Below are positions 12,450 to 62,000 of a stretch of 64,000 nt of DNA, one piece after another. The DNA comes from Polytrichum commune. Lineage: Eukaryota; Streptophyta; Polytrichopsida; Polytrichales; Polytrichaceae. A model generated the notes under the pieces. It did not search any database. It saw only the letters and a program-made list of their open reading frames with translations, and was not told the DNA's origin. Location: positions 15,584,527 to 15,648,526 of the forward strand of contig OX485808.1 of assembly GCA_950295325.1 (NCBI GenBank). The letters are read 5' to 3'. Every line of letters starts with the position of its first letter. The first letter of the stretch is position 1. Both the position numbers and the translations under genes were made by a program.

Positions 12450-18072
<5,623 letters not shown>

Positions 18073-23615: not shown

Positions 23616-25844
23616 TGGAGCCATGAATGTATCAGGTCATTTATCAAGGATCAAAATGGCGGGATCAGGAGGTTATTTAGTAATGTTGCGGTTTTGCAAG
23701 AGCAGTTGGGAAATGTCAATACATACTCCCACGCTGCTAAAGATACAGTGGTCCCGTTTAGGGGAGCCAGAGCAACAGATGTGCTCCAAATAATAAACAA
23801 GCGTGACACTCCAATAGACTCTCTCACTTATGTCAGATTATTGCAGAGGTGTACTCAAGTAAAGGACATCATGGTGGGGAAGCAAGTTCATAATCAAATA
23901 ATTTTTTGTGGACTAGAGTCAAATATCTATATTGCCAACACCCTGATTAAAATGTATTCACATTGTGGGACAGTGGAGGAGGCGCGCCAAGTATTTGACA
24001 AACTCTACAAGAAAACTATTGTATCTTACAATGCGATGATTGGAGGCTATGCGCAAAATAGCAAGAAAAGGGAGGCATTCTCACTGTATGTTCAGATGCA
24101 GGAGGAAGGCATGCAGCCAAACACGATCACTTATGTCAACATTCTGGCGGCATGTGACACCCCGGCAGCTTTTGAATGGGGAAAGGAAATCCATGCTCAC
24201 ATAATCAAGACTGGAGTACCACTATCTGATGTTAGGTTGGGCAACACCCTTGTGAACATGTATGCAAAATGTGGTAGCCTCGAGAACGCATGGAAGGTTT
24301 TTGATAGCATGGTCAATCGGGACCCCGTTACATGGACTATTATGGTAGGACGCTTTGCTGAAGCTGGCCATGTTAATAGGGCTTTTGAGGTTTTTCTTCA
24401 TATGAAAGCGAAAGGTTTACAGCCAAACAAGAGTGCTTACCTGAGCATATTGAGGGCATGTTGCAGTCCAGGGGCTCTGGAACGAGGCAAGGAGGTTCAT
24501 GACTTCATCAAGGGCACTACATTAGCAACTGATGTTAGTGTGGGAAATGCTCTCATACACATGTACGCGAAATGTGGGAGCATCAAGGATGGACAAGAGG
24601 TTTTTGATGGAATGATCGTGCGAGATGTAATTACATGGAATGCAATGATTGGAGGGTATGGTGAGAATGGTGATAGCGAGAAGGCTTTTGCAGTTTGTTA
24701 TCAGATGCAAAAGGAAGGCCCAGAACCAAACAGGATCACATTCCTCAACCTACTCAATGCATGTGGAGCTTTGGAGCAGGTGAAGGAAGTTCATGCCCAA
24801 GTCATTGAATCTGGTTTGTCATCTGAGACTCGTGTTGGAAATGCCCTTGTTCATATGTATGCGAAGTGTGGGAGCATCAAGGATTCGCAGGAAGTCTTTG
24901 ACAAAATGGTGGTACGAGATGTTATATCCTGGAATGCTATTATTGGGGCGCTTGCACAACATGGTTGTGGAGGAGATGCCTTACAGTACTTTGCAAAAAT
25001 GGAGATGGCAGGGGTCAGGCCGAATGAGGTCACATTTGTTGGTGTCCTCTCAGCATGTAGTCATGCAGGCCTGGTGGATGAAGGCCGGGACTACTTCTCT
25101 TGCATGTCAAAAGATTACGGCATTGTGCCAACCATGGAGCACTTTGGCTGCATGGTTGGTCTTCTTGGTCGTGCAGGGCAACTAGATGAAGCTGAGTGCA
25201 TTATTCAGGATATGCCATTCAATGCAAATGCTTCAGTGTGGGGAGCGTTGCTTGGTGCCTGTAGAGCTCATGGTAATGTAATGGTTGCAGAACGTGCTGC
25301 AGATCAGTGTCTGAAGATTGATCCTATGGATGCCACGACTTATGTGTTGCTTTCGCATATCTATGCCTCTGCTGGTATGTGGGACAATGTAGCAGAATTG
25401 GGGAAGTTGATGATGGAAAGAGGTGTGAAGAAGGAGGCTGAACGAAGCTGGATTGAAGTTGAAAATGAGGTACACAGTTTTGTTGCAGAAGATAGTTCAC
25501 ACCCTGAAATGGAGGTAATATATTCTGAGCTGAAGAAATTAACCAAGGAAATGAGGAGTGCAGGATATTCTTCAGATCTTCAACTTGCGATGCATGATGT
25601 GGATGATCATCAGAAGGACTACGGCACTACGCATCACAGTGAAAAGCTTGCCATTGCTTATGGCCTTATCAAGACATGTCCTCAAACTCCACTTCACATA
25701 TATAAGAATGTTCGTATGGGTAGTGATTCCCACACTGTGACCAAGCTTATCTCAAGAATTGTTGGGCGAGAAATCATTGTGAGGGATGCAGGTTGCTTTC
25801 ATCACTTCAAGGATGGTGCCTGTTCTTGTTGTGATGATTGGTGA
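23616..25844 (+). CDS. PLS-class PPR protein with degenerate DYW domain (5' end unresolved)
   Basis: Organelle-targeted pentatricopeptide-repeat protein of the type that binds a specific RNA site for C-to-U editing. The frame is open from a stop at 23613 to TGA at 25842; the first codons here lack an ATG, so the true exon starts at an acceptor, perhaps near 23636 or 23649. I count about 14 PPR motifs in P-L-S order (for example LGNTLVNMYAKCGSLENAWK), then E1/E2 and a DYW domain. One L motif (NLLNACGALEQVKEVHAQ) is about three residues short. The DYW domain keeps HSEKLAIA (25635) and HHFKDGACSC, but the CxxCH zinc site reads GSDSH (25719-25733), the PG box is lost, and the end is DDW. The first zinc site needed for deamination is thus missing. 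It may act in RNA binding, or with a partner deaminase, or be decaying. Confidence 0.92.
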   Translation, partial: WSHECIRSFIKDQNGGIRRLFSNVAVLQEQLGNVNTYSHAAKDTVVPFRGARATDVLQIINKRDTPIDSLTYVRLLQRCTQVKDIMVGKQVHNQIIFCGLESNIYIANTLIKMYSHCGTVEEARQVFDKLYKKTIVSYNAMIGGYAQNSKKREAFSLYVQMQEEGMQPNTITYVNILAACDTPAAFEWGKEIHAHIIKTGVPLSDVRLGNTLVNMYAKCGSLENAWKVFDSMVNRDPVTWTIMVGRFAEAGHVNRAFEVFLHMKAKGLQPNKSAYLSILRACCSPGALERGKEVHDFIKGTTLATDVSVGNALIHMYAKCGSIKDGQEVFDGMIVRDVITWNAMIGGYGENGDSEKAFAVCYQMQKEGPEPNRITFLNLLNACGALEQVKEVHAQVIESGLSSETRVGNALVHMYAKCGSIKDSQEVFDKMVVRDVISWNAIIGALAQHGCGGDALQYFAKMEMAGVRPNEVTFVGVLSACSHAGLVDEGRDYFSCMSKDYGIVPTMEHFGCMVGLLGRAGQLDEAECIIQDMPFNANASVWGALLGACRAHGNVMVAERAADQCLKIDPMDATTYVLLSHIYASAGMWDNVAELGKLMMERGVKKEAERSWIEVENEVHSFVAEDSSHPEMEVIYSELKKLTKEMRSAGYSSDLQLAMHDVDDHQKDYGTTHHSEKLAIAYGLIKTCPQTPLHIYKNVRMGSDSHTVTKLISRIVGREIIVRDAGCFHHFKDGACSCCDDW

Positions 25845-27132: not shown

Positions 27133-29515
27133 TTAGTATAATTGGGCCGCCAAACGTGGGCTGGCCATGAGCACCAGAGGATTAGCCATGGGATTGGTGA
27201 TGCCGAAGTTCTCAGTCATGTCGAGGGTGCTGGGATCCTGTCCGCCGGGGAGTGCGAAGTCGAAAGCCTGCACGAGCCTCGCAATTCCAAAGCTGACGAA
27301 CAAGATGCCCAATGACATGCCCGGGCATTGACGCCGCCCAGCTCCGAACGGGATCAGCTGCAGGTGATTGCCCTTCATGTCGATCTCCGGGTTTCGGATG
27401 AACCGTTCGGGGTCAAACTGAAGGGGGTTCTCCCAATACTTGGGGTCCCTGTGGATGGCATAGCAGTTGACGAACAGCCGGGTGCCCGCCGGGAACTTGT
27501 AGCCCAAAACTGTGGTGGGCTCCACGGACTCGTGAGGGACGAAGAGTGGAGCGGGAGGGTAAAGCCTTGCCACCTCCTTCACGATCGCCTGTAGGTATAA
27601 CAACTTGGGGATATCAGCCTCGATAACGATCCTCTCCTTGCCCACCTCTGCGTCGAGTTCCGCCTGCAGCTTCTTCATACAATGTGGGTGTCGTATGAGC
27701 TCCGCCATAGCCCACTCCACTGTGTTGGATGTCGTGTCTGTCCCGGCCGTCAGCATGTCCTGCATGCATCGGCGTCAACAATGGGATAAGGTTTCAGGGT
27801 TTAAGACATATATATCCACATCGATCCAGAGAGGGCAGAAATTTGTACTTCCAGCCGTGCTTCTCAATTAATCCGACAATCATCAGTGGAGGATAGTAAC
27901 GAATGTCCATACGTTTCGTGCAGATGAGAGACATATACCTGAATGACGCCTCTAATGGATTCGTCGCTGAGTGGCTCATTGCCAGTCTCAGATTTCTGTC
28001 CAAGCAGGACGTCGACAAAGTCTTCCTGCCTCTCTCCGGAGTCTGGAGCTATATTCCCTGCAGTGCCCTTCTTGAGATCCAGGAGCTCCTGCAGGAAAGA
28101 GTCGAGGTCGGCTTTCACCTTCTTCATGTGGGCCACGTAGCCAGAGGCGTGGAAGATCCACTTGAGCCATGGCACGAAATCGCCCACCACATTGCTGGCG
28201 CTGATTGTGCTCAAGGTCTTCTCAATGACTTTCTTAAACCTCTCGGCCTCCATCTCTCCTTCCGCGCTCACCCCAAAGATTCTGCAAAACACAGGAATGC
28301 TTCATTAAAGAAAAAGAAGTACCAAAAGCAACACGAATGCGACAAGAGGAGCCGATTTCGACCCACTACAATACATCAACTTGCACTTCAGAGATTCGTT
28401 CAAGGTCTTCTTGTCCACTCCGAAGTTCTAACCAACATCCCACTGTGAGAAGAAGCAGTTCCATTAATTTGGTCGGAGCATTGTGTGATAGCTGCCGCCT
28501 AGCTCGTCCCAAGGTTGTTGCAATTACTTTTGGACTACCACACAAAATATTCGTAATCCCAGATTTCCAGAAACTAATGAATCTGATAGTTTATTAAACC
28601 ACCAGACTCTAACTTAGAACAGGAATAAGATCCAATTTCACATATCTCGAGTGTGATTATTATCAACAATTTCCAGACAAAATAACTGCACAAGGAATGA
28701 CGTGCGTAGATTGCACTGCAATGAAGGATAAACGCAGGAGCGTCCCAAATCCGTATGAAAGCAGAACACTGCCGAACATAATAAAGGCACCTAACTATAA
28801 GAACAGGAGCCCTACAGGAGATCGCATAGCTGAAACTTTTACATCACACATCCAATTCATTAAAGGAAAAGGAGAATTACAAAAAGAACAAAAATTACCT
28901 CTTGTTCAGCAACATTCGCGTGATGTTGTTGGTGGCGAGATGACTAAGCTTCACAATAAGCTTGACAGGAGTGCCTTGGTGGGAATCCTCATAGATGGAC
29001 CTCACCATCTGATCGAACTCTTCGACGCGCGAAGGCCTGAAACTCTCCAATCTTTTCTGGGTGAGAAGCTCCAGACTACAGATCTTCCTCAAGTGTCGCA
29101 AAAGAGGACCGTAGGGAGTGCCCACAATGTTTCTGTAATTGTTGCTAAAGATTTCACCGGTGATGGAAGGTGGCCGCCCCGCCCAGTCCTTGTCATGAAT
29201 CTTCACGAACTCCTTGGCAACTTCGGCAGATGAAGCAACGACCAATGGCGCTGCACCCATGCGCAAGTACATGATGGGACCATGTTTCTCCGCCAAATGC
29301 CACAGCACCTGGTGAAGGTTCGGTCCAAGCTGATGCATGTTGCCGATGAGAGGAAGCGCTCTGGGACCCGGTGGTCGCTTATCCTCGAGGATCTTGTTGG
29401 TGATCACCCGAACAGCGAAGAGAGTAATGAACCCAAGCAGGATGAGCAGAGGATTCGCTGCTCTAATCAGCTTCTCGACACCCATGATCAAAGCATTGAG
29501 AGCCTCCTGAGCCAT
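27133..29515 (-). CDS. cytochrome P450, A-type (CYP71 clan), 528 aa
   Basis: Membrane-anchored haem monooxygenase of specialised metabolism; the substrate cannot be predicted. Exons 29515-28899, 28281-27939 and 27759-27133 join to 1587 nt with GT-AG introns and no stops. From the N terminus: a hydrophobic anchor (PLLILLGFITLFAV), the RPPGPRALPLIGN hinge, the I-helix LTAGTDTTSNTVEW, the K-helix ExxR as KEVARLYP, PERF as DPERFI, and the haem loop PFGAGRRQCPG with the cysteine ligand. All core motifs are intact and the length is normal. The second intron, just before the I-helix exon, fits A-type P450s. The 181-codon and 178-codon frames on the opposite strand are shadows of these exons. Family assignment needs a tree; CYP71-clan membership rests on the PPGP, GTDTT and FGAGRRQCPG patterns. 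Confidence 0.95.
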
Positions 29516-30884
29516 CGTCGCGCGCTCTTCAATTCACGCAAGAATGCTAATTGTTTTAAGCAACCTGAACTATCCAGGCGGATATGCAGCCAACCCAATA
29601 AAAATTATGAATGTGCGCAGTATGTGAACAAGTGGAAAAACTTAATTCAATCACAGCTACCCAATATGTTCGCAAAGGAAATATCTCACACAGAATCTCT
29701 CTTGCAGACTAGTAGAAAATAAAAGAACTGTAAGCACCACAGACTTGACAATTTGCCACCAAGTGATTAATAGAGTCGGAGAATGTACTCATATATATAC
29801 TCATAGAAGCGAAAGGTATCCCTTCTGCCGAGGCGACGTTGAGGTGTTTCGCATGTCGAGGCTTCGAGAATTAAAGAGCAACCACTCGGCTCTACCGAGG
29901 TTAGTTCCAAGCTACAGTGGACAAAGAGTCGATGATTGCAGGTATGGAGATGTTGGCCCAGAATTGCATGTCGAGGCTTTCGGAATTGAAGCCAATTTGT
30001 ACACGTGTTTCATTTAATGTCCTCGAGAATTCGCAACCTAATTAGGCTTGCTGGAGGCCCGATCGATCAGGGATATGAATGTATCCAAGTACGTCAGCCG
30101 CCTTAGCAATTAAGCAGGGCAGCTGTTATAGGATCTGTAACAGAAGGGACAATTATTGCGATATTAATCTACACGCCTACTTCGGCCACTTCGATAAGTT
30201 CCACGACTTGAGCACTCGGCTTATGTATATGTCAAGCATTCCTATGGTAAAAGTGAGGTCCTGTCTAATATGCTGTATCGCCATTGTTGTGAATTTTAGA
30301 TAGTCGTGGCTACTACGAATTAGTACTACTGACCTTGAATGCACTAATTATTTATTGTATATGCACTTAAGGTCTTACAGAAATGTAGGAGGAGGTGAAG
30401 ATCTGCGACATAAATGTAGCCATGTACCGCCCACCTCTAATATCGACCGCGTGTTGGGATCGTCGACCAAAAGTGTAAGTATCTTCACTCTTGTCCTTTT
30501 GTGCTTTGACAGTGTACTTTACTGATCACCCATGTTGTAATCGAGATCACCCACTGAAGTTTCCGGCCATTGATACATCCGTGCTATAATTCGTCGTGCG
30601 GGACGGCGTTGAAGTTACAGTTTCATTCTAGCAATACGTGATTTTTCGTTTTCAGGTTTGTAGAGATGGGGTGATGCTCTCTGGTGAGGACTACAGATGA
30701 TATACTTGTAACAAGTCGCCATCATTTGCTATCATACATGAAGCCCATTCGTTTCCAGCTATTCGGGCTCGATCGGGACTCTGAGAACTAGGGATCATTG
30801 CTTAGAGTGCAGTAATGAACAATTCACACACATTTGTTGCGGTGACTAAAATTTGAAGTACGGTTTAAGCATTAGGGTTTGAGT
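29516..30884. other. upstream region of the P450 gene
   Basis: Presumed promoter and leader of the P450. No gene, long repeat or RNA is seen. ATGTCGAGGCTT(T/C)G recurs at about 29851 and 29968, a short direct repeat. Confidence 0.5.
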
Positions 30885-36349: not shown

Positions 36350-37246
36350 ATGATGGCTCGATTCATCGGCTTCATGAGCTTGATCTTCTCCCAGCTCTCT
36401 GTGTGCGTAATTCTGCTCATAATGAGCGGTATTTATGGCTCGACGTTCGAGAAATCTGCAATGGTACACGCACATAAGGTACTTCCAACTCCACAGACAA
36501 TATTACTTTTGGCTGTTGGATCAGATCGAGAATTGTATCATCCGGTTAGCAACTGTGAATCATGAAGATTGGTGATTCAAGTTTCGTCAAAATCGGATGT
36601 GATGAAACTTTTCAATACATGTAAGGTTGCATCATAGTTACATCATATGGACGTCGAAATGAAGATTCACTTTCTCTTCAAATGATAACAGAGGCCCTCC
36701 CAATAGTACTTGTGTTAGCTATTGAACCTAGAATGATGTCTATGATATTCGGAGCACGTAAGTCCAATCTCATCGTCACGCATATCATTTCAAGGTGTAC
36801 TCTGTTCGAGACAAACTCTTCACTACAAGCCTGTCCTATTTAGAAGAGTCATGACCACATACCTTGCTGTCCGTGGTTCTGACCAGGTGGTCTACACGTT
36901 GCAGATCGGCCGGAAATTGCAGCAGCAAGTGATCCAGGGTTGCCGACCTTCCGACATTCTCATCACCCAAGGACAAGTCACCCAAGGTGGAGTTCCGCGG
37001 TTTTCAGTGACCGTGTTCAATAGCTGCTTGGACGACAAGTGCAGAATCTCCCACATCATTGTGAATTGCGGCGAGTTCGCAGGTGTCACCGACCCGGCCG
37101 TGTTCCGCCGCCTCCAGCCCGGCACCTGCCTCGTCAACGATGGGCGTAACATGAAGTCCGGCAGCAGCGTGACCTTCGACTACTCGCAAGAGTACATGGA
37201 GCCGCTGTCTGTCCGATCAGCCGATGTGTCCTGCAGCGGGAACTAA
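36350..37246 (+). CDS. TPD1: TPD1-like secreted cysteine-rich protein, two exons
   Basis: TPD1/TDL proteins are secreted ligands of the EMS1/MSP1 receptor kinase that set somatic cell fate around spore mother cells in angiosperms; relatives in other plants have less certain roles. Exon 1 (36350 or 36353 to 36478) encodes a signal peptide (MARFIGFMSLIFSQLSVCVI, then LLIMSG) and ends at AAG/GTACTT. Exon 2 starts at 36905 (acceptor GTTGCAG) or, equally in frame, at 36887, and ends TAA at 37246. The mature part has the family pattern: GCRPSDILITQGQ, PRFSVTVFNSC, KCRISHIIVNCGEF, TCLVNDGRNMKSGSSVTFDY and EPLSVRSADVSC, with six cysteines. Mature length is about 114-125 residues, normal for the family. 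The intron is nearly covered by a sequence that recurs at 55768-56119. Confidence 0.85.
36475..36866 (+). repeat. TPD1-like intron segment repeated at 55.8 kb
   Basis: Collinear with 55768-56119: ACTTCCAACTCCA, GAATCATGAAGATTG, TCTCTTCAAATGAT, GTGTTAGCTATTGAAC(C/T)TAGAAT, TCCAATCTCATC, TTCTTCACTACAAGCCT and CCACATACCTT (near-copy). Similarity starts at the 5' splice site and ends about 40 bp before the 3' splice site. Confidence 0.7.
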
Positions 37247-39877: not shown

Positions 39878-42800
39878 TTATGGACTCATTGTAGGATTCT
39901 TGTACGGATTCAAATCCCTGTTACCAGATTTCAGCTGCTGAATCTCTTGATCTAGCCCTTTAATAACTCGGTCTTTCTCGTTGTACACACCTGTTTTTAG
40001 TAACTCCCCTCTCTGCTTGAGAAGGTATTCAACCTTACTTCTGCTCCCTTCTGCAGCCAAGTCTAAGTCATGCAAGGCACGGTCTTCATTTTTCAAATCA
40101 GCTGATCCTAGGTCATGGTGTCGAGTCTCAACATTTGAAATAGTACCTTTTGTGCCAGATGTGACAGGCTCTTTCTGCTTCTGTCCCATTTCAGTGAGTG
40201 GCTGCCGTGACCAACTGATAGGATTGGCCTTATCATATTTCAACTTGTTTCTCATCTCCTGCCAATCAAGAAACATACTCCTTTTTAAGTATTCTTGTGG
40301 CTTGAGAACTGAAATACTTCACACTGGAATAGCCACACATTCTACCTATGGCCTCCTTAAAGTAATGAGACTCCTGTGCCTTTCAATATCAACACACTTA
40401 CAGAGCTAATAAGTTTCCAGGTAACTTGTTGGTCAGGCCAAGATGAATTACCTATGTTCTCAAATGTCCCCCTGGCAAACAAACAGGCTTCCAAAAACAC
40501 ACAAATAGATAGTCTGGAAAGCAAACCTGGAAAATTCGAAGATCAGTATGTACGATGCCATCCTTTTCATCCTGGGTCTTCGACAAGTCAAGCTTTGGCA
40601 CATTGGCCTTCCTCAGAGATAGCAACGAGTGGTCAGGTAGGGACATAGACTCCACTTTTCTTGGAGAAATGTGACCGCTCTGTTGTTTAGTTGCAGTGAC
40701 AGTCATGGATTCTTGTTCACGAAGCTGCAGAAGGTCCAACTGGTCTTTCAATCGTTGCAACTCCACCCTATCCTCTCTTGCCTTTCGAGATTGAGATTCA
40801 ACAAGAGCTGCAACAGTTTCAGATTCGACTCGACTGCGTTCTTGTGAAGCTTGCTGCACTTGTGCTTTCGTGTGCTCTCTGTGTAATCTTGCCAGTTCTT
40901 TTGCCATCTTCAGCACCTGCACAAAGGACAGTTCAGTGACTGGAACAATGGCATCAACTAAAACCTTAAACAAAATGGACTTCAAGTGATGGCTTGTACA
41001 GTTTACCCAATCCTAGTTGAATGGGAACATATATATGTCACAACCGAGTGGTTGCAAATGCAAAGTCCTCTACAATAATGTTAAACAACCAGGCTTCCAG
41101 GTTTCTGACCTCCATAAGCCTAAAGCTCAGGACATGCTTGAGCTTTCTGCTATCTCAGTGGGATATGACCACATCCCCAAAGAACCAGATCCTTAGATTT
41201 GGCTCATGGAGATGACAGAAACCAATCCCGCATTCAAAGTAATCATTGTAGTATCTGCACTCCTTCAGCACATGGTCTCATCTATAGTAGGCACAAGGTG
41301 ATAGGTGTTGAAGACACTAAATTGTAGGAGTTGCCAGTACTGAACACCAACAACAATCACTTCACACCACAGTAGCTGATATTTAATATCTAGACTGATG
41401 TACCTGATTTTTGTAATCATCTCTAGCATGTAGTGCCAACTCAGCTTTGTGCTGCAAAGTGCCACATTGCTGCTTCAAGGCCATGACCTGGCCTATCAGT
41501 GCAGTCTCAGAGGTATTTCTTTGTGCAGCTTTAAAATCCTGAAATTGCTTCTCAAGAGTGGCTAGTGAGCAATTAGCTATAACTAGCCTTTGCTCTAGCA
41601 AAGAATACTGCTCCTGCAAAGCCACATACTTAGAGCGTTCGAGATCCACTCGGTGCTCACATTCAGCCTGTAGTCTCTTGACTGCGATCTAGGAGTCATC
41701 ACAAGCACAAGACTTTCCTCAGTACAAAAAGACCACCTTAGGTTAACAAAAAAGACCAAGGACCAACAACACTGGGTTCAATAGCACGGTGACAAGTTTG
41801 CCAAGATAAATTTAATGAGGTAAGTTCTAATTGAGTGATTTAGATACACCTGCAATTGAGGTATTACAAAATGACCATTAGGTTGATGGTATTTAAATCA
41901 TGTGACCTGTGCCTCTGATGAGCGATTGGTATTTGCTCGTTCAAGAACTTCTTTGCGGTGTGATAAATCTTCTTCTGCAAGAATTATGGCTCTCTCTCTC
42001 TTCTCCAACATAAACAGCTTTGCCCTGTTGTATATCAAACCATAAAGTTCGCAGGTATACTACAATAGGATTACAATAGGATTAATTATTTGGACTTCCT
42101 TCTTGATATTATAAACTGATCAATCATCTCACTAAAAGCAACATAATGTTGTCCTTAAGAAAGCCTATACAACCCTCACGCATTATTCCTCCATGGTAGC
42201 CTGTTCCAAAAATACAATCTAAGATGCTGAAGGTTTTTAAAAACAGAATTTCATGAAACTTACCGCAATTTGGCCTCCAAGTCAGCTTGCTCTGCTTGAG
42301 AATTGCGCAATTCAAGGGCACGGTCTCTCTCGCGCTTCCTCCATTCCTCTTCAATTGCATGAAGTTTTGCTGCTTCTTTCTCCTTCAAATCAGCACGCCA
42401 CTTTGCTTCCTCTGACCTCCGCCACATCTCAAACTCCCAGGCCATCTCATACTCGGGCTGTTTACGGAGACCATCTACTCCATTCACATCTGACTGCTTG
42501 ACACTCTCATGTACATCTGAACTCAAAGGTGGGGTTTTAACTGGTGATGAAGTTCTCTTCTTCAGCAATGGATTTTTGCATTTCTTGTTAAATGGAGTGG
42601 ACTTAGAGGATAACTTTGGCACCTCCCCAAGCTCAATCTCTTCTAAGGTGTCTTCACCTTGAACCTCACCTTGTTCGGCACAGCTAGAACCTCCTGAGCC
42701 AAAAATATAACCTGTCATGAGTTTTGAAACAGCTGGATCTTCTGGCATTGGTTGCCTGACATGATCCTGGGAAGCTGCAGCAGTCTTGACTTTGCTTGCA

Positions 42801-45671
42801 TCAAGAGCACTAAGAGGACCCATGTCCTCGATTGCAAGCACCACTCGTAATGCTCCAATTTTCACCTGAATCCAAAACATGAAACAATAATTTAGGTGCA
42901 ACATCTGTATACAACTGAACTTGTACACAAACACACAACTGGAGAAAATACAATACAGATGACTTTAGATCACATCCACAATCCGCAACATTCAATCAAC
43001 AGCTTTGCCATAAAACAGAGACCAGAATTGAAATCCAATGTTCAGCACAGAAAACTTCCAACACAGCTTGTTCAACACACATTCAGAATTCCTTTGACAC
43101 CCAAATACATTACATCAGACAGAGCACTGCAACAAAAACCAAGGGCAGTGTGCTCACATCATCAATCTTTCCAGCAACATTTGTGGCACCACGAACAGGA
43201 GCATAGCCATCTGCACATGGCTGATCCATAAGCCGCTTCATGGGGATGGTTGCTACTCCCAGAACACTATCTGCTGCATATCTGCAACATGCCCCAAATA
43301 TTAACAGCTCAGTAACTTGTACCTTCACTAAACTCCACATTCAGATAGTCAAAGGTCCTCAAAAAGAATTCTAACAATTCACTTAAACATCCAAAGTGTA
43401 GTATCCAGTAGCTTAGCCTTTTGAGTTTGTGAAATTTCAGAGAAAATATTTGATGCATTTCCTGCAGCAGGCATAAAATAAAGGAAGATAGAGAAGCAGA
43501 GAAGCTTACTTGTCACGGTGAAGAACATGAGCAGTAACTGCAGGCTGCAACGCCAACATCGCTGCCATGCCATCAGGGGAAGCAGGAAGGTCCAGTGCAA
43601 CGTAGCTGTGAAGTTCAGCCATCCAACCGCCACCCCACAGTCATCCACCAGCTATCAGCCCATTGTTGTTTGCTTTGCTTTTGCCCCCTCTGTCCAGCCC
43701 ACCCCAGCAACCAATGCACTCTCCTGATTATTACAAGCAATTTATATTGACAAAATTAAACTTCTCTAAGAACCCACAGACACTAGGACTAAATTCAGCA
43801 CGGCACTTTATGCAACCATACATACAACCAGCATGTTATGACACAAAATGTAATATATAATCAGGGCACAAGTTTACACATACAACATATGGTCACTGGC
43901 ACAAAAAGGCCACTATTCTTCAGTGAGACGCACAAGCCTCCTGATACTTCCAATATCACCAATGAAAACTTCATACATACACTCAGGAGCTTGAGATCCA
44001 TGTGGTGGGAGTACTTTGGAGGTGGTACTATTAGGCAGGAAAACCTCCACGTTCTCTCACCTACTTCAGTTTATGACTCTATGACAAGGCTCGTTGAAGA
44101 TTCAACGCTTTGAGAGCCAGAGTTAAGGCCATCAGTATATGATATCACTAACCAATACAACTCCTTTAAAAAATGCAGTGAAGTAATTGAAACTGATCAT
44201 TCAAGGTGATCATATAGTGAATACCTTACAAATGGTGCTATAAAAATAAGTAGATCTCTAACGATACTTCAATGATCGTCTTTATAACACGGCTCACTTA
44301 GCAATGGTTAAGTAGACAGCCAAAACTGACTACTTCGTCCCACGGTATCTGTTTCCAGCTCCAAGATCTTTGGCAAAAATGTGAAGCTCAGTATACTTGG
44401 AACCTAGGCAGCCTAAAACAAAGTGAATGCGGTGAGATTGACTTTCAAGATTATGTATACACAGTATTCGCCAAGAGGAGTAGAAATCTCTGGCAACAAA
44501 AGATGTAGCTTTCTCGACTGTCACTACTGAAGTGGACTTGAAACGAGCTAGTCATACCAACCAGAAAGCGGCTTACGCAATCGCAGAATTCAGGAACCGC
44601 AAGACCGTCGAGAAAAAAGTGGTACGAATATGAGCTAATCGTGGCTTAAACCCAAGGCCGGATCCCACTGCAAGTCCGAGATTAAGCCACCCTACCACTT
44701 TGGTCCACCCAATCATAGTGGGGTATGGGGTAAACCAGATAATTTCAGCCAACCACGTGGAACCTAGACCTTGCCTTAAGAGGAAATTAAGGTAGCGGTG
44801 TTAAACCCCTTGTATATAATATTACTATTGTATATAATATTACTAGTTTATGAAATATTATTGTTAATTAAAAGTCAATTCCAACACACCAAAAGTATGT
44901 CTTATTTGAGTTCCCTATGCAAGGGTTGTAAAGCTTCAAAGTTTATTGGTAGATGACCCATACCCAACATCAGAACCTAATGTTAAGGTGGTGGAAATTC
45001 TCATAATCAATACATATGTATTGTGCAAGGATTTTAGGATGTTGGTTCTGATACCTGCTAACTTAAGGACGGGCCAGCTTGTCTGTTTATCTGTGGGCAT
45101 GTTGAAGGACTGGCCAGCTAGTCTGGCCATGTTCAAGGTGTTCACCTTCGAGAGGAGGCAGAGGGAGTAGTATTTGAGGGTCCTCTAGTTCTTGTGATGC
45201 CCGTTTAAGATTACATGTAGACTTCGACCAACTTGAAGATGAAGCAACACCATCATTCAACAAACAGCATAATTCGCACTGGTAGTAACATCGGAGTCAA
45301 CTCTTCTTCTCTTCGGTATGAGCTATGGACTCCAAATTGGATTGCATCAATTCGAGAACTCACCCATTCGAGATACTGACTTCGGTTCCACGGCTCACAA
45401 GCACAGGCGGGTGAGTGCGCAATGGAGCAGTCACCTTGGACGACATTGCACACGACTCTACTGCCACGCGGACAATCTCCGGCGGCAACGCGACCCGCAC
45501 GAACACGTTCGCTGACCGCATGGGCAAATGCATGTTCGCCTTGAAGCTGCGGACATCCACACTGATGCAAAACAACCGAGCTTCACTATTCCTGTCTCTA
45601 CACTCCAATTCCTCAATTTCTCCACTCCCGCCGCTGGAGTTTCCATCTGTCAAGCTCCACCCTCTCATCAT
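39878..45671 (-). CDS. CEP120: CEP120-like centriole/basal-body protein, 8 exons, 767 aa
   Basis: In animals CEP120 loads onto daughter centrioles and supports their elongation and cilium assembly. Exons on the minus strand: 45671-45364, 43605-43510, 43281-43158, 42865-42264, 42024-41907, 41688-41404, 40916-40527 and 40258-39878. They join to 2304 nt in frame, GT-AG throughout. Residues about 30-190 form a C2-like unit (FCISVDVRSFKA, HVLHRDKYAADSVLGVA) like the second C2 of CEP120. A linker follows, then a long coiled coil that starts EYEMAWEFEMWRRSEE and continues EEEWRKRERDR, ECEHRVDLER, LEKQFQDFK, and AKELARLHRE. The C terminus has LLKQRGELLKTGVYNEKDRV, matching the signature end of animal CEP120. 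It is shorter than the human protein (about 986 aa) because it lacks the first C2; a TGA lies in frame six codons before the start. Implies a plant with flagellated sperm. Confidence 0.88.
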
Positions 45672-46729
45672 CAAACCCCAAACCCTTCAAAACCTCAGCC
45701 AATTCCCTCTGCAGCTGGTTACAGACTCTCGCACATGTGGTTGCGTGGATCATCAAACTGCGTTCACAGCCTTGATTGCGGCAAAGTGCATCCAGCTTGG
45801 CTCTCGATAACTGTGATCTGCAATGGAAGATTCAACTTCAAAGCGTTTTCGAATCTGACTGTGCTCGACGTGGTCGTGAGCTCTGCCAGGGTGGGTGGAA
45901 TTAGGGTTGCAAGAAACGAAGCGGGAAATCAGCACCCCTACTAGGGACCCTATTCCCGCTCTCCATTCCCATGCATTCACCCATTCCATGTTTTGTTTTT
46001 TATATTTATTTATATGTGGGCTTCCTACTTTGTAAGGTTGAGGTTAATAGGCCCACTTTATACTTTGGGCCGGATTGAGGGCTAGCCCGAACTTTAAAAA
46101 TTTGGATCAATAAGGGCCGGTTTACACTACGGTGGAGAAGGCCTCCGGTCGGTCAAGAATGCTTGGCCAAGACATGGTTATATGAGGCAAATGGTGGATG
46201 TGCCGGAGAAGAATTAAAGGCAATAAAATATTTCTTAAGGAGTCTTGACTGGTTGAAGTCTAAACACCTAGAGGAGAAGTTTAGTGGAGAAGTCCACCAG
46301 AGAAGAGAAGTTCACCTAATGGTGAAGATTTTTTGTGATAAAAAACCATAATTCTCTACATTCACATTGTATCAAAAGATTTCAACAAGAATTGTGTTCA
46401 TAAGAATTGTGTAATATAATGTTCAATTTTATTCAAAAGATAATGAAAATTGCCAATTGTCAAGTTTGGCCCGTGTAGGAAATAAATGTCTCCTTGGGTG
46501 TTTAAGAATGAAGAAGGGAAACCCCATACACATTGGACAAAGCACTACTCTTTGGTATTATTCAAGACATGATCTCCTCTTAATCATCCTCATCAATTTC
46601 TCTCTTCTTATCTTTGATCTTCAATCATGGATAATTGAAGAAGAGAGATTTTGTGCTCTCTTATGATCTTTATAGTTTTGAAGTATTTTATCGTTTCAAC
46701 TATGGCGATACAGAAAACCATCATGTATC

Positions 46730-46871
46730 ACCATAATGCTTCAATTACGGAATCAATATCACCATAAGCACTTCCTGGAAATTGCCTTGAGGGCTCAAAA
46801 TAATTCTCACTACCAATGAGGTCATCCTCATCTTGGCTACTACCAAACTGAAATTGTGAGTAACCAGCCAT
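46730..46871 (-). pseudogene. possible remnant of an element-encoded protein
   Basis: An ATG after a (CT)n/(GA)n leader opens a 47-codon acidic frame (MAGYSQFQFGSSQDEDDLIG, ending IDSVIEALW) inside the PIF/Harbinger-type element. The leader-plus-ATG arrangement suggests the truncated 5' part of the autonomous element's transposase or companion DNA-binding gene. The homology is inferred from position only. Confidence 0.3.
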
Positions 46872-46916
46872 TGCGAAAAAAAATTGCACAAAAAAAATCG
46901 CTAAGGAGCTACTACA

Positions 46917-46920
<4 letters not shown>

Positions 46921-46950
<30 letters not shown>
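46921..46950. repeat. (GA)n microsatellite
   Basis: Fifteen uninterrupted GA units inside the PIF/Harbinger-type element. Confidence 0.9.
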
Positions 46951-46957
<7 letters not shown>

Positions 46958-47034
46958 CCAACACCTTAGGTTTTGAAAAAAACCAAATCTGAAATCTACG
47001 GTCTAGATCTGTTTTTGAAAATTAATTTTTTATT

Positions 47035-47118
47035 GAGTTGGGCTTCTACGGAGGAGGAGTTTCTTTTCCGGCCTCTTGAGGCCGGACAAGAAACTCCTCC
47101 TCCGCAGAAGCCCAACTC
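47035..47118. repeat. hairpin with 41-bp arms
   Basis: Left arm 47035-47075 starts GAGTTGGGCTTCTACGG; right arm 47078-47118 ends CAGAAGCCCAACTC. The arms differ at two of 41 positions and are separated by TT. The centre reads CCGGCCTCTTGAGGCCGG. It would form a very stable RNA or DNA hairpin. Confidence 0.9.
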
Positions 47119-48724
47119 CAAAAAGTGCCGCCATGTCGGCGGCCATGTCATTTTATCATCCATGAGAAAAGTTCACCACCATTGTTTTCTTCACCTAGTG
47201 TAAACACCCACCGGTCAAGAGTTGCATTTTCGACCAATCACAATTGAGAAACGCCCTTTTTTTCATGACCGGTGGACTTCTCCACCGTAGTGTAAACCGG
47301 CCCTAAGATTGCTCGGTTTCATCAAATTTGGTCCAAAGGCTTTATACTAGGGTTGGGCCCGAACACTCAGTCTTCCATGTGATGTCCCACGTGACACAAT
47401 TTTGGTGCCAAACCTTGGAACTACCTTGAAAAAATTGGGATGAGCTTTTTCTTAGCCCGAACTCTCACCATCAACCGGATTGAACTCATCCATTGGATAT
47501 TGAACAACTCTATTGTTAGTTCATGGAAGGTTGATTCTCTTTGCTACACTATACCCTCAAAGAACATCCAGACTTAAATCCGGGCTTCATCACTTCGCCT
47601 ATGACAAGGTTGGGTCCGCAAAAAGTTGATAAAGTTGGGCTTGATTGAGGATTTAATTGCACATGAATCGGCCCAGTGCTCGGGGCAACCCCAAGTTGTG
47701 TATAAAGGGTGAGGCATCAATAACCAATAAGTTAAAATAAGAGAGTTTGCGTATGTTAGGAAGAGTAGTAACATGGGATTCTTTTTTCTTGCAAAGATAA
47801 ACATATTCTAACAAGAGCGCAAATTTTTAGATTTTATTCATGAATATGGAAATTGCTAGAAATTTTTAAACAATCAAAGCTATGGGAAAACACAATCAAT
47901 CCATACGTTGATCCGTCACCGCTCATCTAAATGCTAATTCTAGGTTACAACAATTGTCAAAACTCTTATAAGTCTTATGAGGGCAATCAATCACAAGCCA
48001 CTGCCACCACATAAACCTTAACTTCGTTCGCCTAAAAAATATAGATCTCATCCATGTCAACATCACATGTATCTTAGTGAACAGTTAAATGAACCTAGTC
48101 AACTATGGATGCCTCAACCATAATTATGATAGGGAACCAAGCTGATTGAAGAATAAGCTTTGATGAATATTGGCTTCAAAAATGCATAGTAATCCCAACT
48201 TTAGGAATAAAATTAATGAAAAATTTGTATTCCTCTCGATTTCTATCTTCCTACATGGAAAAAAATCGCACCACCAATACTTCTCCAAATCTGGCACAAA
48301 ATGTCTTAAGTAATCGGTTATGGGTGGCTCTACCATAATTGGTCTGCTCATGGATGTAAAGTATTGGTTATGGATGCAATGTCCTCTGTGTAGACTAAAA
48401 AGCGCAAGAGAGTTGTTGGACGTGCCCTTCACTTGGATGAGCGACAGGTTATGATGTTGGACGAACCAAATGGACGATACTATACGAGACGTGGATGATA
48501 TCATCCAAAATGGAGACAAAGGCCCGAGCAATAACTGTGTGAACGCGTACACAGAAAACCAGTTCGCTTTCACACCGGAGTGTGAAGTCGGTTACGAGCC
48601 ACTTTGGAACCCTAGCATGCTGTTCGTTTTTTTCCTCCGCTAGCTCTCTTCTTCCATCGTCACACGCTCAGGCTTTGCGCTTGGATCCCGATTCATTGCT
48701 GCATCTCCATCGCATCGCATCGCC

Positions 48725-51519
48725 ATGAGCGACATCTTCGAGGGCTACGAGAGGCAGTACTGCGAGCTCTCCGCCAACCTCTCACGGAAGTGCACCTCCG
48801 TCGCGGCTCTCTATGGCGGTGAGCTCTCCCTTCTCGCTTCACGCGCTTTTATTCACCTCAACTCTCTTCTCTACTCTTCTCTTGCAATTGTTGCGTCCTA
48901 GGGCTCATAATTGCGATGCTAACGGCGTTTCTCTGTCTATGTCTTGGTTTCGGATAACTCTACTACGCAGTTGAGCTTGGGGATCGCATTTTCCGCATTC
49001 ACCTCAAGTCTTTACCTTACCCTTCTGTTACGATGGTTTTCGATGCTTTTTCAGCCTCGTAGGGTTCTTAATTGCGATATTAAAGGCGTTCTTCCGCCTG
49101 TTTTATGGTTCGGGAGGAGTGGACAAGGCAGTTGAGCTTGAGGATCGTTTTTTTCCCGCATTTACCTCAACTCTTTACCCTTCATTTTCGATCGCTTGCG
49201 CTGCTTTTGCAGTCTCTTAGGGTACGCAATTGCGATGCAAACGGGATTCTATGATCCGTGTTATTGTTTCGGACGCGGCTGAGCTTGGATCAAAAATTTC
49301 CTCATTCACGCCACACTTTAGATTTTAGTATTTTAATCCTTTGCCCTGCCTTTTATGCCTCCAAGGGCCCGTAATTGCGACGATAACGGAGTTTTCTTCG
49401 ACCTATTTCCTTCGTTGGGGAGTAGAGTACGACGGTGTTGAGCTTGGGAATCGTTATTTTCAGCGTTCATTAAGTGTAGATCGCTGCCAAGTGGAGCACT
49501 TTCAGTTCTGACGACGTGTCAAGACCTGCAACCTTGGAGTGGGCTTTGGATTTCTTTCTATTGGAGTATTTGTCTACTTGGGGGGCAATTCTATAGACCT
49601 GTTCGAATTAACTTCGCCAGTTTACGGGCATTAAACTCATAAGATCGTCCTATGCAACCATGACTAAGCATTCCTTGTAGCCAGTCTTAGTGTGCCTAAC
49701 ATGACACTTCTTATTTGATGGCCTATGATCACCTTCTGGCTTACGATCCTGTTTCTTTGAGAGTCGAGAATTAGTTTTTATTTGTCATATCGCCAAATTT
49801 AGCATCCTTCTACCTAATGACGTAGGTGGGGAATTTTGGCAACTTGTTAGTGCTTTGTGACTCGAGGTGATAGTTCTATACATTCTAATTCGCCCTCTTA
49901 AGCCCATGTTTTTTTGGGGTTTATAATTGATGGTTTTGGTGTTGTGTTCATGCAATCTGTTGATTGCAGAGGAGAAAAAGCACAAGCTTACAGAGCTCAA
50001 GACTGGACTGGATGAGGCAGAGTCGCTGGTATGTGTATCTTATCTCATAGTTCAATCATTGATATTGTTCCTTTTACATGAGGGTCTTTTTTTAAATGCA
50101 TCTAATTTGTTGTCAGTTGCTGGGCGCCTTAGACCCCTTCTAAGTTGTTTAGATTTGGTGCTGTCACTGAGCATATTATATTTCTGAAACTACTTGTGGG
50201 CATCCCTTTTGAGAATCTGCCTGTCAAGATTCCTTCCTGACAAAAGAAAGGTTGAATTTGGTGTGAACTGAAGATTTTGAATTCCTGGTTCAAATAATTG
50301 ATCTAACATCCTGAATATGTAGATCCGGCGCATGGATCTGGAGGCCCGAAGCCTACCCCCAACTCAGAAAGCCAACTTACTGACCAAGTTGAGAGAATAT
50401 AAGTCTGATCTGAACAACTTGAAGCGAGACGTGAAGAAGTCATCTTCAGCTGATGCTGCGGCTGCTAGAGATGATCTTCTCGAGTCTGGGATGGGTGATC
50501 ATGTCAACGTATGCCTCCACGATCTCTTCTCCTCTAGATCATTTACCCTGTCCTTTAGTTGTTTCCGTTCTTATTGCACTTTTCCATGTCTATTTTTTTG
50601 ATTTGATGTTCTCTTCTTAGGTTGTCTCTTCTTGATTTCAAGAGTTGTCAAGTCTGCCAAAGTCAGCCTCCTTACCAAGTATGCTTCACAGTTGATGTAT
50701 CTGCTAGATGTTTGCATTGCATTGGTCTGATTGCACAAAATTCATTTTCTGCTGCAGAGATAGTTTCAAGGTCATAGGCTATTACAACTTTTTTCCACCA
50801 TTTTCAGCTACATCTGCCTGCTCAACAATATTACATGTGGTTTGCACACTTTTCTTTTTGTGTGTATTGGATAATGTTCTGATTGGGTTCTATTCTTATC
50901 AGAGACTCATTCCTTTTGCCTCTGTGCAGTCTGGAGCCGATCAAAGGGGCAGATTGCTAATGTCCACAGAGCGACTCAATCAATCGGGTGAGAGGATTAA
51001 GGAGAGTAAGCGCACCCTTTTGGAAACAGAAGAGTTGGGTGTTTCTATTCTTCAAGATCTGCACTCACAGCGGCAACAACTCCTTCATGCCCAAGGAACT
51101 GTAAGATCACTTGTTTGTTGTTTTATGTAGTACATGTGTGACAGTTTGGTGCTTGTTAAAGTTTCATCTGTGAGCGCATCCTCAATGACAAAGTTATGTG
51201 AACTGATAGGGGGTGCTCTTGAACCTGGCACAAGATCAGAATAATAGCAATGCTCGGTTTTTTGTGTTTGTAGAGTACTCATCCTTACCTTAGATGTCTT
51301 TTTGGAAAGGAGTTGACTTGTAGTAATTTAGGTGTTCACATAGAGGGGGACCTTGTCTTGCAGCTGCATGATGTTGATGACAACATTGGCAAGAGTCGGC
51401 GGATCCTCAATTCAATGGCCCGGCGAATGACTCGGAACAAGTGGATAATGGGAAGCATCATCAGTATCTTGATCTTGGCCATTCTGTTGGTTATTTACCT
51501 GAAGCTCAGTAGGAGCTGA
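48725..51519 (+). CDS. VTI1: VTI1 Qb-SNARE, five exons, 221 aa
   Basis: VTI1 proteins are Qb-SNAREs on trans-Golgi, prevacuolar and vacuolar membranes that pair with syntaxins for vesicle fusion. Exons 48725-48818, 49970-50028, 50323-50508, 50930-51100 and 51364-51519 join in frame to 221 residues, the usual VTI1 length. The N terminus MSDIFEGYERQYCELSANLS and then RRMDLEARSLPPTQKANLL match plant VTI11 closely. The SNARE helix is in LLETEELGVSILQDLHSQRQ and LHDVDDNIGKSRRILNSMAR. The tail WIMGSIISILILAILLVIYL is the C-terminal anchor, followed by KLSRS. Intron 1 (1.15 kb) contains a four-unit tandem array. The gene lies divergent from the CEP120-like gene. Confidence 0.96.
48880..49475 (+). 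repeat. four imperfect tandem units (about 158 bp) in VTI1 intron 1
   Basis: The anchor AGGG...AATTGCGA occurs at 48900, 49061, 49219 and 49373 (spacing 161, 158, 154). Each unit continues with a (T/A)AACGG-like word, a GTTGAGCTTG(G/A)(G/A)GATCG-like word (GCTGAGCTTGGATC in unit 3) and TCATTCACNNCA-like text. Divergence is moderate, so the array is not recent. Confidence 0.8.
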
Positions 51520-59064: not shown

Positions 59065-62000
59065 ATGGCGAGCTCCGCCATCCTCCAGCACCTCTCGCGA
59101 GCTGCGACCGGTGTGGGCGGTGACACGGCGAAGAAACTCTGCCGCTTCTCCTCCTCCTGCGCGTCTATCAGCGGCGGCGGCTCCGCGCAGTTGCGGCTCA
59201 AATTGCTGCCGCGGCAGCAGAGGGGCAGCTCAATTCGCCCCAGCTTGCCGGTCATTGTTGCGAGGGCGAACGACTCCCCCCTGAATCATCAGGTTATGGC
59301 TGTCTCCTTTTTTTATTTCTTTTATCTCTTCTTTTTCTTTGATACCTCATCTTTGCTAACAGTCCACCAACATTTTAGTGTTGCTGGATATTTTTGGAGG
59401 TACTCGAGAGTAAGTGGGTAGCCTTAAAGGTCGCAAGTAGTGACTCTAAGGTAAAAGAGTCCCAGCAATTCAGGGTATGTGGGAATTGGAGACGAAATAA
59501 TAAGCTTTGGGGGTGACTGAGAAAAAATAATGTCGAGGGCGACGGGGTTTGGTTCGATGACGGCGAAGTAATGATGATGTTCGGGCTGGTTGAAATGTGT
59601 CACTGAATTTTACCCCACATGTGGATGCCGCCATCTTATGCATTATTCAGGATTAAGCCCTTGCTCAATCTATAAGAGAATGTACACACGCAGTTATGGA
59701 ACTCAGTAAGGATGTGCAAGTGCAGTGGACCGGAGAGCTTTGTTTGAGTCCAGTCAGCTTATGAATAGGCGGAAAAGAGAGATTTGGGAAAGTTTGGCTG
59801 ATTTGTTGTGCAATGATTTAGATATTGGTGTGAGGCCATTCCAGGTCCCTAAACCCTAAACCCTGCTGTGATGAGCTAAGGTTGCCAAGTGATTGGCATA
59901 TGTTTGTCACCATGGAGTACCACCAGTGGGCGGTTACTCTGAAATTAGAGTCGTCCATCAATTTAACGGGACTTTTCGTCAGGAGTTGGTACCCTTTGTT
60001 TATTAATTGGTTGTTTTGCATACCATATCGATAATTTCTATCCACTTGTGGTGCATGGTTGGAGGTAGCGTTTGAATTGAATGAAGAGCAACTTATTTTG
60101 GTTCAGTGAGGGCGAAACTCGATTTAGCACCTCAAAATAAGTTTGACCCAAAATGAACCGAAATAGAAGGTTGCTCTGGCTCCATTTCAGCAGTATAGTG
60201 GGGTTAGTGGATGACAGTCGTTGGTTATGTTGTTCTTATGTGCTGGAGGGCTTTAGCTTGATCCTTTTCCACTTAATGAAAATGTACCATTACCTTTAGA
60301 ATGATCAATTGAGTGAAAAAGAATCAAGCAAAAGTGTAAAATGCAGTTTTCCCACTCAAGTGAAGAGTGGTGGGCATTGAACGGAATGAAAATGTATCAG
60401 CCTCAGAATGACATGACATTGATAAAAAGGGTGCAGAGGGGTGCAGGTTGGAATGCTTTTGGTGCAAGGGTTAAGCTCTGGAATTAGGTCATGCACTCAA
60501 CATCAGACGTTCACTTCCTCTGTGCAATGTCAACGACATAATAGATTTGCTAGTACACGAGTACAATGTAGTAAACAATTCTCAGCCGAAAAGGGCAGGC
60601 CAGGCAAGGGCATGAGGCCTCGACGTAAGCTGCGATTACGTGCTCGCTTGAGGCTGCTCCTACGATACATCCGCCGAGGGCTGCTACCACAAAGGGGGTT
60701 TTCATGGAAACCCGTGTTGCTAGCAGCTCTATTGACATGCACATGTACTCTTGCTGCCACCTTTTTACGTGTCTCTGCGGCGCCAGCCCCACAAGATATG
60801 CCTTACTCGGAGCTTATTGATCACATTCATGCAAGGACTGTCACTTCTGCCCTTTTTGAAGAAGGCACTCAATGCCTCTTGTTTAACACACAGCCTGCTG
60901 TCAACGAAGAACCACCAGTGCAGGAAGTTGTGGAGCTTCTTCCAAGTGCATCTGTGGAGGAGGTTCGAGGTGTACAGCAAGTAGCTGCTAGTAATGAAGC
61001 TGGTGTCTCAGGCAACAAACTAAAAGACTATCTGTCCACTAAAAAGACTCAGCGGAAAAGCAAGTGGGAATTTTCTACGCGGCGAGTGCGAAATGACGAG
61101 GCATACTTACTGGGCTTGATGAGAGAGAAGGGTGTCCGTTACAGCTCAGCTCCACAGACACTTAGCGCATCATTTCGGTCACTACTCATTACAGTACTTT
61201 CCCTGTGGATACCTCTTAGTCCTCTAATGTGGCTTCTTCACCGACAAATATCAGGGAATAACTCGTCTGCTCAGAAACGCCGCTCTGCCAGCCGACTCGT
61301 CAACTTCCAAGATGTTGCAGGAATAGACACTGCTAAAGTAGAGCTCTCAGAGGTATGAATTGTTTCATGTGGTGAACTATTTCAAATTTCATGTGTTATC
61401 GTGACTGTTAAGTCTCATCCGAGTAAGCATAGGTTGCCATATCCGTGTCCACAAATCCTCCTGCATCCAACCACTCTTTGCTTTCCAGATGCAGATGTGG
61501 GTGCACCATCCCACTGGTTCAAGCCGTATCCATTACTGTGTTTGGGGAATACTTATTAAGGATCTAACTTGTTTTGCAAAAAGACATGGCAAAGAGCTCG
61601 TCTATTCAAGTACCCTAAATTAGTTTAAGTAAATGAATCACCTTGAGGTGGAAATCCGAGAGGATACAAGGTCATTGATAGCTTGTCTCATTTGTTTGTT
61701 GAGAGTTTTGCGGTGGCAAGAAATGGGTTGAATTTTGTTGGAAAAAGTGGATGGCTGCATTCACTTTCTGCGTTCAAAAGCAGGTATGGCGACTGGTGGG
61801 AGCCATCTCAACATAGTTTTCATAATATCCACTTTTCAGTCACAACATATGTTTACAAATATGGATATGGCAACCAATGCGCTCCGTCTCAACATACTTT
61901 TCAACATAATATCCACTTTTCATTCACAATATGTACTTTTTATGGATATGGACACAATAACTGGTGGGCTTGCTCTCAGAGGATATCCATTCTAAGTGGG

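What the first reader, a model, noticed from the sequence alone, without database searches (positions are those of the whole stretch)
39878..45671. A CEP120-like centriole gene in a plant genome, with a single C2-like domain
The joined 767-residue product matches CEP120 in order: a C2-like unit, the coiled coil beginning with EYEMAWEFEMWRR, and the terminal LLKQRGELLKTGVYNEKDRV block. Established: seed plants without motile sperm lack centrioles. Inference: this organism builds basal bodies, probably de novo in sperm cells, and uses a CEP120 trimmed at the N terminus. A plant CEP120 without its first C2 may show which parts are needed when there is no pre-existing centriole.
Basis: partly seen in the sequence, partly recalled or inferred. 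Interest (0 to 1): 0.75.

Follow-up and report, generated by a model that had tools for sequence, protein, structure and literature searches.

The report
Plant CEP120 with one C2 domain
A plant with swimming sperm, probably a moss, carries a copy of the centriole-building gene CEP120, and its predicted protein seems to lack the first two of the three domains at the front of the animal version, including the one that grips tubulin.

Summary
Observation confirmed. Eight minus-strand exons (45671 to 39878) join into 767 residues. The product is CEP120-related: its C2 unit best matches CEP120 C2C in the PDB (E 1.7e-6), its coil is 32% identical to human CEP120 over 288 residues, and the end block matches. 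The human C-terminal half finds only this locus in the genome (3 of 3 matches). The retained C2 is the third, so C2A (tubulin-binding) and C2B (ciliopathy mutations) both seem missing. A splice-aware scan back to the next gene finds neither, while C2C as control stands out; but single C2 exons are hard to see, and a weak linker match lies upstream. The genome has SAS-6, a marginal C2CD3 match and eight dynein heavy-chain places. LEAFY genes suggest an early-diverging moss. Bryophytes build sperm basal bodies de novo, so a CEP120 is expected. The reduced N terminus is the unusual part. Other plants could not be compared, so whether it is typical of plants, special to this lineage, or an annotation miss (about 20%) stays open.

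The parts
45364..45671 (-). Exon 1 of the CEP120-like gene: predicted start ATG at 45671, first strands of C2C (FCISVDVRSF...)
   Evidence: join; tblastn with human CEP120 residues 454-503, E 0.26; in-frame stop just upstream at 45687-45689
43510..43605 (-). Exon 2, C2C middle
43158..43281 (-). Exon 3, C2C (VLGVATIPMKRLM)
42264..42865 (-). Exon 4: last C2C strand (ALRVVLAIEDMG), linker, start of coil (EYEMAWEFEMWRR)
41907..42024 (-). Exon 5, coiled coil
41404..41688 (-). Exon 6, coiled coil
40527..40916 (-). Exon 7, end of coiled coil (MAKELARL) and linker
39878..40258 (-). Exon 8: linker and C-terminal block LLKQRGELLKTGVYNEKDRVIKGLDQEIQQL, stop codon
45672..48724 (-). Upstream stretch between the predicted start and the divergent v-SNARE gene; no C2A or C2B exon detected
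   Evidence: (splice-aware scan of 45672-48740 with controls)
46113..47304 (.). Multi-copy DNA element with 38-nt terminal inverted repeats, TAA at both borders, inside that upstream stretch

Best explanation
This is the CEP120 (UNI2-type) gene of a flagellate land plant, probably an early-diverging moss, in an N-terminally reduced form: C2C, a linker, a long coiled coil and the C-terminal TGVYN block. Shown here: the predicted gene structure, the homology, the identity of the retained C2 as C2C, and no recognisable C2A or C2B exon up to the next gene. Inferred: the coil dimerises the protein and holds it at growing sperm basal bodies; C2C plus coil, with partners such as C2CD3, act at the distal end on microtubule extension or on ending the C-tubule, as uni mutants of Chlamydomonas suggest. 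Because the tubulin-binding C2A is missing, direct tubulin loading would have to come from another protein or not be needed when basal bodies form de novo.
For: Gene model. The C2 unit hits CEP120 C2C chains 6flk and 6ewp, E 1.7e-6 and 2.3e-6, and as the only other row at E<=10 a beta-lactamase at E 0.83; no C2A or C2B chain is listed. Smith-Waterman z: 18.3 for C2C, 0.7 for C2A, 1.6 for C2B. Coil 92 of 288 identical, E 1e-34, and end block 16 of 40, E 1e-6, against human CEP120. The human C-terminal half finds only this locus in 408 Mb (3 of 3 matches at E<=10), and the plant protein finds only its own exons (8 of 8 matches at E<=1). Splice-aware scan upstream, 12 resampled sequences each: C2A 43 (null mean 46.5, max 61), C2B 40 (mean 46.1, max 58); controls on the gene itself: C2C 95 (max 64), coil 429 (max 63). 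Flagellar gene set: SAS-6, 2 adjacent matches, best E 2.1e-19; dynein heavy chain, 13 matches at 8 distinct places; C2CD3 N-terminal domain, 2 adjacent matches, 30.2 and 27.7 bits at a cut-off of 27. C2A binds tubulin, and results suggest that C2B does not directly contribute to that (PMC5990496, discussion passage). UNI2 encodes the Chlamydomonas CEP120 homologue (PMC6070942, passage).
Against: No transcript was available, so start codon and joins are predictions. BLASTP of the whole proteins reports the coil and end block but no C2C stretch; C2C rests. The general Pfam C2 model PF00168, which matches human CEP120 twice, does not match the plant protein, and neither does any other family except CCDC92 at E 0.016. 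The Pfam 'Cep120 protein' model PF12416 covers human residues 167-340, that is C2B, and matches neither this protein nor the genome (where no control genome rang either). CPAP (Tcp10_C) and TALPID3, known partners, did not ring in the genome; for TALPID3 no control genome rang, for Tcp10_C only one bacterium did, below cut-off. Single C2 exons are barely visible to a human query: exon 1 reaches E 0.22-0.27 and the C2C exons are missed genome-wide. Upstream of exon 1, in the right order, the human linker before C2C has a weak match on the minus strand at 45824-45901 (tblastn E 8.6-8.7; phmmer E 2.1, rank 3). Four of 20 upstream minus-strand frames of 40 or more codons have positive codon scores, two of them outside the mobile element (0.06, 0.05) as high as exons 5 and 8 (0.05, 0.04), so the codon test cannot rule out upstream coding. 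In one search the C2A query scored 49 (null max 47) in the gene's own 5' half and 55 (null max 56) in its 3' half, of 15 comparisons; neither lies upstream.
Confidence: 0.7

Rival explanations
1. The gene is a full three-C2 CEP120 whose first exons, too divergent to recognise, lie in the 3 kb upstream stretch; the predicted start is an annotation artefact.
For: Single C2 exons of this divergence are barely detectable with a human query (exon 1: E 0.22-0.27). The human linker before C2C weakly matches the minus strand at 45824-45901, upstream of exon 1 and in the right order (tblastn E 8.6-8.7, phmmer E 2.1). Frames 45688-45831 and 45767-45928 have codon scores of 0.05 and 0.02, like the weakest real exons. 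A mobile element sits in the stretch.
Against: Splice-aware scan at or below null for C2A, C2B and both together, with a C2C control well above null. Exon 1 has an in-frame stop just upstream of the ATG and no obvious acceptor with a pyrimidine tract (read by eye). About 1.9 kb of the stretch is not mobile element, and it must also hold the promoter of the divergent v-SNARE gene (start about 48725).
Confidence: 0.2
2. C2A and C2B exist as a separate gene elsewhere in the genome (gene fission) and work together with this protein.
For: Not excluded: the genome-wide protein search is insensitive to short C2 exons (one search missed the real C2C exons).
Against: PF12416 (C2B) gave 0 candidates in the genome (no control rang) and the human C2A-C2B query gave one 35-residue match at E 7.26.
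Confidence: 0.07
3. The locus is a truncated, decaying copy (pseudogene).
For: Missing N-terminal half; mobile element just upstream.
Against: All eight exons are open, GT/AG borders are available, and in-frame codon usage leads in 8 of 8 exons. No second copy was found in a genome that keeps other flagellar genes.
Confidence: 0.03
4. An unrelated coiled-coil protein that resembles CEP120 by chance.
For: Coils share composition; Pfam names no CEP120 model for it.
Against: Shuffles reach at most 146 (plain) and 118 (heptad-preserving) against 391 observed, 300 of each. No PDB chain matches the coil and tail at E<=1. An independent globular match to C2C comes in the same order.
Confidence: 0.01

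Closest known systems
Vertebrate CEP120 (human; C2C chains 6flk, 6ewp)
   Same: C2C, then coiled coil, then C-terminal TGVYN block, in that order
   Different: Vertebrates have C2A and C2B in front; most metazoan CEP120 proteins have three C2 domains (PMC5990496, section 8 read). Neither is found here.
Chlamydomonas UNI2
   Same: The green-lineage CEP120 homologue by report (PMC6070942, passages); expected to be the nearest characterised relative
   Different: I did not have its sequence, so its number of C2 domains was not compared. Another paper calls it a putative orthologue not yet confirmed functionally (PMC7727171, passage).
C2CD3 / SAS-1
   Same: Also a C2-bearing centriole protein; CEP120 interacts with C2CD3 in human cells (PMC6465297, title and start of abstract)
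   Different: A separate place in this genome (C4:2112392-2113076, just over cut-off)

Membership tests
CEP120 | C2C domain | tested here: met
   PDB 6flk, 6ewp E 1.7e-6 and 2.3e-6; z 18.3. Not seen by BLASTP nor by the general Pfam C2 model.
CEP120 | Long C-terminal coiled coil homologous along its length | tested here: met
   32% over 288 residues, E 1e-34; 391 vs shuffle max 146 plain and 118 heptad-preserving
CEP120 | C-terminal TGVYN-type block | tested here: met
   16 of 40 identical, E 1e-6
CEP120 | Reverse search returns this locus alone | tested here: met
   3 of 3 matches at E<=10 of the human C-terminal half in G000
CEP120 | C2B (Pfam PF12416, 'Cep120 protein') | tested here: not met
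   No match in the protein or the genome (no control rang); scan at null. I therefore file it as an N-terminally reduced variant, not as a standard three-C2 member.
CEP120 | Tubulin-binding C2A | tested here: not met
   Scan upstream at null; genome search best E 7.26 (low sensitivity)
CEP120 | Location at centrioles or basal bodies, role in elongation | not testable with these tools
   Needs tagging and knockout

The most novel reading that the evidence does not exclude
A CEP120 without the tubulin-binding C2A and without C2B is the functional form in a whole lineage of plants that only ever build centrioles de novo. C2C plus the coil would then be the indispensable core of CEP120, and C2A and C2B would serve templated duplication or elongation control.
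Probability: 0.25. Interest if true: 0.65.

Novelty: new variant of a known kind. Interest (0 to 1): 0.42.

Why it matters
In animals C2A is the part that binds tubulin and C2B carries Joubert and Jeune mutations. A working CEP120 that lacks both would show that neither belongs to the minimal machine and would offer a natural deletion to test in moss sperm, where gene replacement is routine. If other plants keep all three C2 domains, the loss would be a puzzle of one lineage; if none do, the animal N terminus may be an elaboration.

Tried and rejected
Pfam on the joined protein gave only CCDC92 at E 0.016 (15.5 bits, cut-off 28.3), which I take as chance. PF12416 in the genome rang nowhere, controls included, so alone it shows nothing. 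A bacterial promoter and terminator scan of 45600-46150 found nothing and does not apply to plants. I considered that the minus-strand frame 45764-45928 (…VRFENALKLNLPLQITVIES…) might be an upstream exon: the human linker before C2C matches part of it weakly (E 8.6-8.7 and 2.1), its codon score is 0.02, and the C2A/C2B scan gives it no support; I left it out. The best phmmer row for the linker is E 0.075 at 50811-50906 on the minus strand, inside the v-SNARE gene region, taken as chance. I did not fold the C2 unit: the joined protein is not contiguous in the DNA, and a single sequence would probably fold poorly.

Literature on CEP120 in plants: searches for CEP120 with 'land plants' (1 paper), 'Physcomitr' (2), 'Marchantia' (3), Chlamydomonas plus 'C2 domain' (9), and for two of UNI2, Physcomitrella, centriole (67 papers, 25 listed) listed none that, by title and start of abstract, is about a plant CEP120; a search for four of C2CD3, Talpid3, phylogenetic profile, CEP120, plants gave 0. 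Of the 15 rows I read passages of PMC9014216, PMC7727171 and PMC4554922 only. Passages of PMC3268115 (conservation of ciliary proteins in plants; no 'UNI2') and PMC4888484 gave nothing on it. Most subscription papers are not held, so this does not show that nothing is in print.

Because the first two favour missed upstream exons, I moved the best explanation from 0.75 to 0.70 and that rival from 0.15 to 0.20.
Full report
What was checked. The finding names a CEP120-like gene at 39878-45671. GT donors and AG acceptors are present at 7 of 7 introns, but I picked them by eye. An in-frame stop lies just before the first ATG (45687-45689). Codon usage in the predicted frame beats the other two frames in 8 of 8 exons, with a small training set of 1643 codons from other genes of the window.

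Is it CEP120? The first 194 residues, searched against all PDB sequences at E<=10, hit two CEP120 C2C chains (6flk, 6ewp; E 1.7e-6 and 2.3e-6) and, as the only other row, a beta-lactamase at E 0.83. Against the three human C2 domains the Smith-Waterman scores are 110 for C2C (500 shuffles: mean 27.8, max 47), 35 for C2B (max 48) and 30 for C2A (max 50). So the retained unit is the third C2. BLASTP of the whole proteins gives the coil (92 of 288 identical, E 1e-34) and the terminal block (16 of 40, E 1e-6), but no C2C stretch, and the general Pfam C2 model does not match, so the C2C assignment rests. The coil is not mere composition: 391 observed, against at most 146 in 300 plain and 118 in 300 heptad-preserving shuffles. 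The coil and tail match no PDB chain at E<=1. In reverse, the human C-terminal half finds only this locus in the 408 Mb genome (3 of 3 matches at E<=10), and the plant protein finds only its own exons (8 of 8 matches at E<=1). Identity as a CEP120 homologue, in one copy as far as this search sees, is firm; orthology is the simplest reading but no tree was made.

Are C2A and C2B really missing? The next gene upstream is a divergent v-SNARE gene (Pfam V-SNARE and V-SNARE_C) starting near 48725, so about 3 kb remain, of which 46113-47304 is a multi-copy mobile element. Among 3388 open-frame fragments of the window the best for C2A is E 2.9 and for C2B E 2.3, both on the plus strand; of the eight rows printed for each, the only one on the minus strand upstream is at E 12 (C2A). 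The true C2C exon 1 reaches only E 0.22, so that scan is weak. I therefore wrote a splice-aware local alignment of protein to DNA. Over 45672-48740 it gives C2A 43 (12 resampled sequences: mean 46.5, max 61), C2B 40 (mean 46.1, max 58) and both together 43 (mean 48.2, max 62). The controls on the gene itself give C2C 95 (max 64) and coil 429 (max 63).

Results against the reduced form. The human linker that precedes C2C has a weak match on the minus strand at 45824-45901, upstream of exon 1 and in the right order (tblastn E 8.6-8.7; phmmer E 2.1, rank 3). Four of 20 upstream frames of 40 or more codons have positive codon scores, two of them outside the mobile element as high as the weakest real exons; among controls 1 of 9 intron-1 frames and 3 of 12 downstream frames are positive, so the codon test does not decide. 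C2A scored 49 against a null max of 47 in the gene's own 5' half and 55 against 56 in its 3' half; neither lies upstream, and I read them as noise or cross-similarity. Genome-wide, the human C2A-C2B query gives one 35-residue match at E 7.26 and the Pfam C2B model PF12416 none. These two are weak negatives: the human C-terminal query missed the real C2C exons genome-wide, and PF12416 rang in no control genome.

What organism? The assembly has 408 Mb in 64 contigs, and the listed matches of the mobile element fall on C1 to C7. It has three LEAFY places (6 matches). Of the two that I translated, one reads MRHYVH…GAWRQ and one MRDYVH…GAWCQ; from memory these are the marks of type I and type II. 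Several mosses outside Bryopsida, Polytrichum commune, and one liverwort are reported to have both types (PMC6588583, passages). An early-diverging moss is thus likely, but this is inference.

Does it make basal bodies? SAS-6 N-terminal domain: 2 adjacent matches, best E 2.1e-19. Dynein heavy chain: 13 matches at 8 distinct places. C2CD3 N-terminal domain: 2 adjacent matches just over the cut-off (30.2 and 27.7 bits at 27). CPAP (Tcp10_C) and TALPID3 were not found; for TALPID3 no control genome rang, for Tcp10_C one bacterium did below cut-off, so absence is not shown. In bryophytes two sperm centrioles form de novo through a bicentriole, with SAS-6, Bld10 and POC1 required in Physcomitrium (PMC9014216, passages). 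A CEP120 gene fits that.

How it probably works. In animals C2A binds tubulin and promotes microtubule formation, and C2B seems not to contribute directly (PMC5990496, discussion passage); a central region binds CPAP and the coil dimerises (PMC4554922, passage). In Chlamydomonas, uni2 mutants often fail to build two flagella, and in uni1 uni2 double mutants some triplet microtubules reach into the transition zone (PMC6070942, passage). The moss protein keeps C2C, the coil and the end block. I infer a dimer at the distal part of growing sperm basal bodies that works with C2CD3, without direct tubulin loading by C2A. The sequence steps are shown; place, partners and action are inferred.

Against what is known. 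It is a CEP120 by C2C, coil and end block, but fails the C2A and C2B features, so I call it an N-terminally reduced variant. Most metazoan CEP120 proteins have three C2 domains (PMC5990496, section 8). How many UNI2 or other plant proteins have could not be tested. This is the main limit: the reduction may be the common state in plants, a loss in this lineage or, at about 20%, an annotation miss.

Noticed in passing
46113-47304: DNA element with 38-nt terminal inverted repeats (95%) and TAA at both borders (a PIF/Harbinger-type mark, recalled). Multi-copy: 997 candidates, 40 scored, 174 matches, list cut short; four other full-length copies listed at 86-93% identity and many 635-nt partial ones at 96-97%.
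   Followed up: partly
48725-51127: Divergent v-SNARE (VTI1-like, name recalled) gene head to head with the CEP120-like gene; its two Pfam pieces are assumed to be one gene.
   Followed up: partly
36746-37243: TPD1 (tapetum determinant 1) C-terminal domain, E 3e-23, in a plant without anthers if it is a moss.
   Followed up: no
L007, L008 (G000:C1:40571878 and C1:62299295): Type I-like and type II-like LEAFY genes in one genome; a third LEAFY place on C7 was not translated.
   Followed up: partly
23616-25841; 27136-29533; 60426-61355; 12450-12875: Ordinary neighbours: a PPR-DYW protein, a cytochrome P450 in two pieces, an FtsH_ext match just below cut-off (24.6 vs 25.5 bits), a serine carboxypeptidase start.
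   Followed up: no
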